Assembly: GCA_021850545.1 (NCBI GenBank)
Contig: JAJZLU010000020.1
Coordinates: 1-55,984, forward strand
Reading direction: 5' to 3'
From: Thermoplasmata archaeon
Lineage (GTDB): Archaea; Thermoplasmatota; Thermoplasmata; Thermoplasmatales; Thermoplasmataceae
Length of the DNA: 55,984 nt
This document shows positions 44,317-45,903 of this stretch, one piece after another. How positions within the stretch are numbered: position 1 is the stretch's first letter; the number at the start of each line of letters is the position of its first letter. The notes beneath the pieces were generated by a model that searched no databases, was not told where the DNA came from, and saw only the letters and a program-made list of their open reading frames with translations. Made by a program: the position numbers and the translations under genes.

Positions 44317-44502
44317 ATGGCACAGGAAAATGGCCGAAAGATACTAGACGTAACACATATTTCATCAAGGGGCTCATCTTACAGGATAACCCTGCCGAAG
44401 AAAGTGGCAGCACAGCTAAGCCTCTCAGATGATGATGACATCATCATCTTTTACCAGGAAGAAGAAGGAAAGATCTCCTTGGAAAAACTAAAGCATCAGT
44501 GA
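44317..44502 (+). CDS. AbrB/SpoVT-type DNA-binding protein
   Basis: The frame is open from 44227, but the ATG at 44317 (MAQENGRKILDV) follows a TATA-like box by about 25 nt and starts just before the domain, so I use 61 residues. The swapped-hairpin AbrB fold is visible in VTHISSRGSSYRITLPKKVAAQLSLSDDDDIIIFY. Such proteins bind DNA as dimers and act as transition-state or antitoxin-type regulators. No toxin gene lies beside it. The solo TnpB element begins 21 bp after its stop. Confidence 0.8.
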   Translation: MAQENGRKILDVTHISSRGSSYRITLPKKVAAQLSLSDDDDIIIFYQEEEGKISLEKLKHQ

Positions 44503-44523
44503 TTTAACCAATATTTCTGTAAA

Positions 44524-44640
44524 GTGAAATCCTCCCACGACTAAACCCGTGGGCTTCCTGCTTCGACCAGTGCGCTTGCCCTGATTCCCTCTCTTGCGAG
44601 AAGTTCCAGAGCAGTGGTGCGTCTGTCCACAGGCGTTAAT
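44524..44640 (-). ncRNA. Predicted omega RNA scaffold of TnpB (approximate)
   Basis: In the IS605 group the tnpB 3' end and right end make an RNA that guides TnpB. The hairpin at 44534-44553, with the tnpB stop in its loop, should be its last stem. The scaffold should end at about 44524, and the following minus-strand bases (about 44523 down to 44508) would be the guide. The 5' limit (about 44640 or further) is a guess from typical RNA lengths. Inferred from position and family knowledge. Confidence 0.45.
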
Positions 44641-45761
44641 TCCCCACTCTCCGTGGGTACTCCTTCCGAAATTAATGCGAATCTTCTTATGTTGATTGCT
44701 GCATTCACATCCCTGTCATCTGTGTATCCACATCGCTCACACACGAAGCGCCTTTCTGAAAGTCTCATATGTGACTTCACATGGCCGCAGGCTGAACACA
44801 TCCTTGTGGATGGCTCATACCTGCCGATTTCCGTGAAATTCTTCCCTCTTTGTGATGCCTTGGTTTTCAGCATCATTCTGAAGGTGTACCACCCTGCATC
44901 AGCTACTGCCTTTGCACGGTGATGATTTCCTTTCATCATCTCCTTGAGGCTGAGGTCCTCAACAGCTATTGTGTCGTATGTCCGTGTGAGGACATCGGAT
45001 ACCTTGTTGAGAAAGTCCTTTCTCTGATTCGCTATGTGTTCCTGTAGGCGTGCCACCTTGACACGCTGTTTCCCTCTGTTTTGAGAACCTTTCCTCTTTC
45101 GTGAAAGGTTCTTCTGTGCCTTCCCCAGCTTCATCTCGGATTGAATTATGTGTTTTGGCTTGTGTATCTGTGTGCCGTCAGAGAGCGTGGCGAATGTCCT
45201 TATTCCCATATCGATGCCTATGGCAGATTCCTCTGCAACGGGCATCTGCAGAACGTCAGGATCCTGTTCGCACACTAGGATGGAAGCATGATACTCCCCT
45301 GACGGAGATTGTGAGATCGTTATGCTCCTCACTTCTCCGTCAAAATCCCTGTGTCTGAACATCCTTATTGGTCCCTTGAAGTTTGGAATGAAAAGTCTGT
45401 TGTCGATGATGTTGAATCTCTGCGTTACTGTGAAAGACTTCTTCTTATGCTTCCTCTTGAACACAGGTTCTTCTCCGAGTTTCTTGAAGAACCTTCTGTA
45501 TGCGGTTTCAAGATGAAGCAAAGACTGTTGCAGGCTCTGTGAATTGACCTCTTTCAGCCATTTGTACTCATCCTCTTTCTTCAGTAGCGTCAGTTCCCTG
45601 CACATCTGCTTAAAGGATGTGCTCCTTCTTTCCTCTGCATAACGCTTGTTATTCAGGTCAAGGAAATAGTTCCACACAAACCTGCAGCTACCGAAATGCT
45701 TTGCAAGTACCACTTTCTGATCTTCAGAAGGATACAATCGGTATCTGTAGGCTCTCAACAT
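44541..45761 (-). CDS. tnpB: TnpB RNA-guided endonuclease (IS605 OrfB family)
   Basis: This 406-residue TnpB is complete. An N-terminal HTH_OrfB_IS605 region (YRLYPSEDQKVVLAKHFG) precedes the RuvC-like nuclease: Asp184 in AIGIDMGIRTFATL, Glu268 in IAVEDLSLKEM, and the last Asp in the DRDVNAAINI motif (about 349-358). A zinc ribbon has C322-x2-C325 and C341-x2-C344. All three catalytic acids are kept, so the enzyme should be active with its omega RNA. The stop codon TAG lies in the loop of the right-end hairpin, as expected when the RNA overlaps the gene's 3' end. Without TnpA it would cut DNA but not transpose by itself. Confidence 0.93.
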   Translation of the reverse strand: MLRAYRYRLYPSEDQKVVLAKHFGSCRFVWNYFLDLNNKRYAEERRSTSFKQMCRELTLLKKEDEYKWLKEVNSQSLQQSLLHLETAYRRFFKKLGEEPVFKRKHKKKSFTVTQRFNIIDNRLFIPNFKGPIRMFRHRDFDGEVRSITISQSPSGEYHASILVCEQDPDVLQMPVAEESAIGIDMGIRTFATLSDGTQIHKPKHIIQSEMKLGKAQKNLSRKRKGSQNRGKQRVKVARLQEHIANQRKDFLNKVSDVLTRTYDTIAVEDLSLKEMMKGNHHRAKAVADAGWYTFRMMLKTKASQRGKNFTEIGRYEPSTRMCSACGHVKSHMRLSERRFVCERCGYTDDRDVNAAINIRRFALISEGVPTESGELTPVDRRTTALELLAREGIRASALVEAGSPRV

Positions 45762-45903
45762 CCTGTTTAAGATATTCTGTTGATTACCTTAAGCCTGTTC
45801 TTTCCTCCAAATGTTGTGCCTCGCTTTCATCCCACCCATGAATGGTGTGGGCTTTCTCGCTCGGCTGTTGGTAAATTTTCAATTATTAAATGCCAAAAGA
45901 AAA

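What the first reader, a model, noticed from the sequence alone, without database searches (positions are those of the whole stretch)
44508..44560. Intact TnpB with predictable guide
Seen: catalytically complete TnpB, right-end hairpin with the stop codon in its loop, and end sequence GGATTTCAC. The guide should begin at about 44523 (TTTACAGAAATATTGG, minus strand), next to the abrB 3' end. With left flank TTTAC (45871-45875) the empty site can be reconstructed as TTTAC followed by this guide.
Basis: partly seen in the sequence, partly recalled or inferred. Interest (0 to 1): 0.6.

Follow-up and report, generated by a model that had tools for sequence, protein, structure and literature searches.

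The report
Solo TnpB element with mapped guide
An archaeal genome carries an intact, transposase-less mobile element encoding an RNA-guided DNA-cutting enzyme (TnpB), and comparison with 42 related insertion junctions shows exactly which neighbouring bases it would use as its guide; this is a well-placed member of a known kind, not a new one.

Summary
Window 44524-45870 (minus strand) is a 1347-bp solo-tnpB element of the IS200/IS605 type in a Thermoplasmata genome. The 406-aa TnpB has ISDra2's catalytic triad and zinc finger. The stop codon lies in the loop of the right-end hairpin, and the element ends GGATTTCAC. I tested the boundary: in 43 distinct junctions the sequence is fixed up to this motif and essentially random from the next base on, so the guide starts at 44523 (TTTACAGAAATATTGG). 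Left ends follow TTTAN (here TTTAC). In two related copies inside host genes, joining flanks at exactly these boundaries restores the reading frame; one joined protein aligns without gaps to an uninterrupted homologue. Three congeneric species lack the element at the same site; in two, intergenic lengths were counted (55 and 56 bp, versus 54 here without the element). The 3' end of tnpB shows compensatory base changes in RNA stems and suppressed synonymous change, as expected of a guide RNA. No RNA was measured, and no TnpA transposase was found in this roughly 90%-complete genome. One detail stands out: target motif TTTAC and element end TTCAC differ by one base. Real and predictable, but of a published kind.

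The parts
44524..45870 (-). complete solo-tnpB element (1347 bp), IS200/IS605 type, no tnpA inside
   Evidence: ends fixed by alignment with related copies
44541..45761 (-). tnpB ORF, 406 aa, intact
   Evidence: Pfam OrfB_IS605, Cas12f1-like_TNB and HTH_OrfB_IS605 all above cut-off; phmmer to ISDra2 TnpB 8H1J E=1e-70
45210..45212 (-). RuvC catalytic Asp D184 (ISDra2 D191)
44958..44960 (-). RuvC catalytic Glu E268 (ISDra2 E278)
44709..44711 (-). RuvC catalytic Asp D351 (ISDra2 D361)
44643..44657 (-). guide-RNA scaffold hairpin 1 (CCCACGGAGAGTGGG), inside the tnpB ORF
   Evidence: four of five pairs change on both sides between the two subfamilies (CG to GC), 99.3% of cells paired
44534..44553 (-). 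right-end hairpin with the stop codon in its loop; also the last scaffold hairpin of the guide RNA
   Evidence: compensatory changes in five of seven pairs
44524..44532 (-). right-end terminal motif GGATTTCAC (GGAT[GT]TCA[CG] in relatives)
44508..44523 (-). predicted guide, first 16 nt: TTTACAGAAATATTGG (host DNA, outside the element)
   Evidence: sequence conservation ends exactly before 44523 in 43 junctions
45871..45875 (-). left flank and predicted target-adjacent motif, TTTAC
   Evidence: same position holds TTTAN/NTTAC in most related copies
45831..45851 (-). left-end hairpin CCCACACCATTCATGGGTGGG, the usual type of TnpA recognition structure
   Evidence: conserved at left ends of relatives
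44317..44502 (+). abrB/MazE-like gene downstream of the guide (host)
   Evidence: Pfam PF04014
45904..46242 (-). HxlR-family regulator on the other flank (host)
   Evidence: Pfam PF01638

Best explanation
A solo-tnpB IS200/IS605 element inserted 3' of TTTAC between the convergent HxlR and abrB-like genes. Its TnpB is an RNA-guided DNA endonuclease whose guide RNA is the 3' end of its own transcript: about 130 nt of scaffold overlapping the end of the ORF, ending at GGATTTCAC, followed by host sequence from 44523 as guide. The RNP should cut TTTAC-TTTACAGAAATATTGG, which is the empty site left when the element is lost, so that repair from an element-bearing sister restores the copy. It spares the occupied locus because there the guide sequence is preceded by TTCAC. 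Movement would need a TnpA supplied in trans. Shown here: the ends, intact nuclease, conserved RNA structure, the joining rule, and empty sites in relatives. Inferred: transcription, cleavage, recopying and trans-mobilisation.
For: Catalytic triad and zinc finger aligned with ISDra2 TnpB. Sharp conservation boundary at 44524/44523 in 43 junctions. Left ends after TTTAN. Joined flanks restore a 241-aa FAD-oxidoreductase ORF (L016) and a 203-aa ORF (L004); full-length only at the predicted boundary, not one base either side. The joined L016 protein aligns without gaps at 63% to an intact homologue and one Pfam domain spans the junction. Empty syntenic sites in three congeners, with intergenic lengths 55 and 56 bp against 54 for the joined window flanks. 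Compensatory changes in two scaffold hairpins, 95.3% of cells paired versus 45-60% when slid, and RNAalifold independently finds both plus a long-range stem. Synonymous change suppressed in codons 361-390 (2/28 and 2/29; Fisher p=0.001 and 0.003). TTTAC+guide occurs nowhere in the own genome or the five congeners with two or fewer mismatches, except its own TTCAC-preceded copy. Published parallels: ISDra2 (PMC8612924), and S. islandicus TnpB7, where the right end is TTCAC, the TAM is TTTAA, TTCAC abolishes cleavage and -3T matters most (PMC11043419).
Against: No RNA or cleavage data. In S. islandicus the solo (IS1341-type) tnpB genes, unlike the tnpA-linked ones, showed no overlapping transcript (PMC11043419), so expression may not follow. 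No TnpA was found in the own genome (89.6% complete), so excision, and with it the need to cut an empty site, may be rare or absent here. The empty-site bases of the congeners are too diverged (best guide identity 12-14 of 20) to show the exact window junction.
Confidence: 0.85

Rival explanations
1. The element is a silent relic: the ORF is still intact, but no guide RNA is made and no TnpA exists to move it, so it is on its way to decay.
For: No TnpA in the own genome; solo tnpB genes of S. islandicus lack an overlapping transcript (PMC11043419); the other TnpB in this genome (C45) is broken by stops.
Against: Intact triad, zinc finger and 406-aa frame; RNA stems kept through compensatory change across the family; reduced synonymous change over the scaffold region; the congeners' empty sites suggest the insertion is specific to this lineage.
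Confidence: 0.12
2. The true right end lies further out (after TTTAC at 44519), giving a TTTAC...TTTAC direct repeat, and the guide starts later.
For: TTTAC flanks both sides of the element as delimited.
Against: Only one other junction of 43 (L087) has TTTAC after the end motif; joins at other copies work only with the boundary right after TCAC; IS200/IS605 elements make no target duplication.
Confidence: 0.02
3. A domesticated TnpB-like protein (TldR-type, nuclease-dead repressor) regulating the adjacent abrB-like or HxlR gene.
For: Element without transposase, sitting between two regulator genes.
Against: Catalytic residues all present; site empty in all three syntenic congeners, so no conserved association.
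Confidence: 0.01

Closest known systems
ISDra2 TnpB (Deinococcus radiodurans)
   Same: Same domain layout, catalytic triad and zinc finger; guide RNA from the right end overlapping tnpB; guide is flanking host DNA; TAM equals the left flank (PMC8612924).
   Different: ISDra2 carries its own tnpA; TAM TTGAT rather than TTTAC.
Sulfolobus islandicus IS605-type TnpB (SisTnpB1/SisTnpB7)
   Same: Archaeal; TTTAN-type TAM (TTTAA; TTTAT for solo copies, PMC10640517) and right end TTCAC with guide immediately after; TTCAC is not cut (PMC11043419).
   Different: Active Sulfolobus examples are tnpA-linked; the window copy is solo and its TAM (TTTAC) differs from its end motif (TTCAC) by one base instead of two.
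tnpA-bearing relatives in the same genus (e.g. G005:C67, C59)
   Same: Similar right-end scaffold, hairpin and TCAC end; TTTAA left flank where it could be read.
   Different: Only about 40% identical TnpB, with a Y1 transposase gene upstream; end motif GTCAC rather than TTCAC.
Rfam HgcC (RF00062) and sot0042 (RF02656) RNAs
   Same: HgcC model matches (below cut-off) fall on tnpB 3' ends in relatives and on the window's scaffold plus guide start.
   Different: Sub-threshold scores; HgcC's function was described as unresolved (PMC5732400).

Membership tests
TnpB RNA-guided nuclease (IS200/IS605) | RuvC D-E-D triad and zinc finger of TnpB | tested here: met
TnpB RNA-guided nuclease (IS200/IS605) | Structured RNA encoded at the right end, overlapping the tnpB 3' end | tested here: met
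   covarying stems, suppressed synonymous change; transcription itself not tested
TnpB RNA-guided nuclease (IS200/IS605) | Guide is the host sequence directly after the right end | tested here: met
   conservation boundary in 43 junctions; that this sequence is in the RNA is inferred
TnpB RNA-guided nuclease (IS200/IS605) | RNA-guided, TAM-dependent DNA cleavage | not testable with these tools
   needs biochemistry
IS200/IS605 element | Insertion 3' of a fixed short target, no target duplication | tested here: met
   left flanks TTTAN; in-frame flank joins at two copies
IS200/IS605 element | Subterminal hairpins at both ends | tested here: met
IS605 group (autonomous) | tnpA present in the element | tested here: not met
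   no Y1_Tnp in the element or the own genome (genome 89.6% complete)
IS1341 group (solo tnpB) | tnpB alone between the ends | tested here: met
   1347-bp element holds one ORF of family size

The most novel reading that the evidence does not exclude
In this solo subfamily the TAM has become TTTAC while the element's own end is TTCAC, so the nuclease tells the empty site from its own occupied locus by a single base (position -3, T versus C), one fewer difference than in the tested Sulfolobus TnpB (TTTAA versus TTCAC), in a genome that seems to have no transposase.
Probability: 0.5. Interest if true: 0.4.

Novelty: new member of a known kind. Interest (0 to 1): 0.3.

Why it matters
It gives a fully delimited, testable TnpB system in Thermoplasmata: enzyme, scaffold, guide, target motif and the exact self-versus-target difference are all specified to the base. 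Single-base discrimination at TAM -3 can be tested directly. It also supports reading Rfam's HgcC RNAs as TnpB guide RNAs.

Tried and rejected
Base-exact empty site at the window's own locus: the three congeneric sites are empty, but their intergenic DNA is too diverged to align. Second target sites of the guide: none in the own genome; one 3-mismatch match in G003, taken as chance. TTTAC direct repeat as a target duplication: rejected. sigma-70-type promoter and terminator scan: little above shuffles and not suited to archaea. First attempt at the junction count used a faulty pattern and caught only 14 junctions; corrected. Flank joins of most other copies fall in intergenic DNA or give no clear frame and say nothing either way. 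No structure prediction was run, because the sequence match to solved TnpB structures was already unambiguous.

Full report
What is there. Window 44524-45870 on the minus strand is a 1347-bp element containing one gene, tnpB (44541-45761, 406 aa). Pfam finds all three TnpB domains above cut-off, and phmmer pairs the protein with ISDra2 TnpB (8H1J) at E=1e-70 over residues 3-369. The RuvC residues of ISDra2, D191/E278/D361, correspond to D184/E268/D351 here, and the two CxxC pairs are kept. The TAG stop lies in the loop of the right-end hairpin CCCACGGGTTTAGTCGTGGG, followed by AGGATTTCAC.

Where the element ends. I did not rely on the motif alone. Related TnpB copies were fetched from the same genus, family and order (Thermoplasmata). 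Aligned copies agree up to GGAT[GT]TCA[CG] and then diverge at once. In 43 distinct junctions the twelve columns before the boundary carry 1.3-2 bits and the twelve after it 0.04-0.25 bits. Because that motif was part of the search pattern, the informative part is the abrupt loss after it. Left ends follow TTTAN: TTTAC for the window and two G005 copies, CTTAC and TCTAT for two others, TTTAT or TTTAA in more distant relatives.

Is 'flank + guide' really the empty site? Two relatives sit inside host genes. Joining their flanks at the same boundaries restores a 241-aa reading frame (L016) and a 203-aa frame (L004); moving the left boundary by one base gives only truncated frames or none. The L016 join aligns without gaps at 63% identity to an intact homologue in G019 across the junction, and one FAD-oxidoreductase domain spans it. 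At the window's own site three congeners have the HxlR-abrB neighbourhood without the element. Their intergenic lengths are 55 (G004) and 56 (G001) against 54 for the joined window flanks; G005 is empty too, but its length was not counted. The bases there are too diverged to show the junction itself.

Is there a guide RNA? On an alignment of 30 related 3' ends, a scaffold hairpin inside the ORF switches from CCCAC/GTGGG to GGGAG/CTCCC between subfamilies with only one cell unpaired, and the right-end hairpin shows compensatory changes in five of seven pairs. 95.3% of cells pair, against 45-60% when partners are slid. RNAalifold finds both without being told, plus a long-range stem CCTGT/GCAGG with compensatory changes. 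Between the window copy and two G005 copies, synonymous change is suppressed in codons 361-390 (2 of 28 and 2 of 29 codons; Fisher p=0.001 and 0.003 against codons 31-360). Codons 1-30 are also conserved against L004, so this signal alone is not decisive.

How it most likely works. By analogy with ISDra2 (PMC8612924), TnpB bound to this RNA cuts the vacated site, TTTAC plus guide, and repair from an element-bearing copy restores the element. The occupied locus is spared because the guide DNA is there preceded by TTCAC; the own genome has no other match with three or fewer mismatches. In S. islandicus TnpB7 the right end is also TTCAC, the TAM is TTTAA, TTCAC abolishes cleavage, -3T is the most sensitive position and -5 is free (PMC11043419). 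That fits the variable -5 base seen here. It also shows what is slightly unusual: with TAM TTTAC and end TTCAC, only position -3 differs. A different Sulfolobus enzyme, SisTnpB1, tolerated most single TAM changes (PMC10640517), so whether one base suffices here is an open question.

Mobility. No Y1 transposase was found in the own genome (89.6% complete), whereas congener G005 has nine matches, several directly upstream of a TnpB subfamily about 40% identical to this one that shares the right-end scaffold and hairpin. Mobilisation in trans is therefore plausible but not shown. S. islandicus solo tnpB genes lack an overlapping transcript, which is the main reason to doubt expression here.

Side result. 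Rfam's HgcC RNA, called functionally unresolved (PMC5732400), matches the window's scaffold and guide start weakly. Its seven sub-threshold matches in relatives lie at the 3' ends of tnpB genes or tnpB-like fragments. In T. kodakarensis three HgcC RNAs start inside transposase genes in sense (PMC4247193). HgcC is therefore probably a TnpB guide-RNA family.

Verdict. The observation and interpretation hold. It is a new, precisely delimited member of a known kind; interest is modest.

Noticed in passing
window 44511-44649 (-); L167-L173: Rfam HgcC (RF00062) model matches, all below cut-off, coincide with tnpB 3' ends; some also match sot0042. HgcC is probably an archaeal TnpB guide-RNA family whose function was still described as unresolved in 2017.
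   Followed up: partly
L125, L087, L086 and L037 versus window: Two hairpin types (CCCAC..GTGGG and CCCC..GGGG) occur at left and right ends and mostly match within a copy; both types appear in the solo and tnpA-linked subfamilies of G005, suggesting shared transposases or recombination between subfamilies.
   Followed up: partly
G000:C45:19-1023 (L117): The only other TnpB found in the own genome is broken by two stops and resembles the tnpA-linked subfamily, yet keeps a good right end GGATGTCAC.
   Followed up: no
L034 (G005:C53:48800-50900): TnpB copy with an internal deletion that removes part of the RuvC/zinc-finger region but keeps both ends and the guide-RNA scaffold: a possible guide-only element.
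   Followed up: no
L004 and L037 (two G005 copies): Codons 211-270 of these two copies show no synonymous change while neighbouring parts differ in 25-38% of codons, suggesting gene conversion between copies.
   Followed up: no
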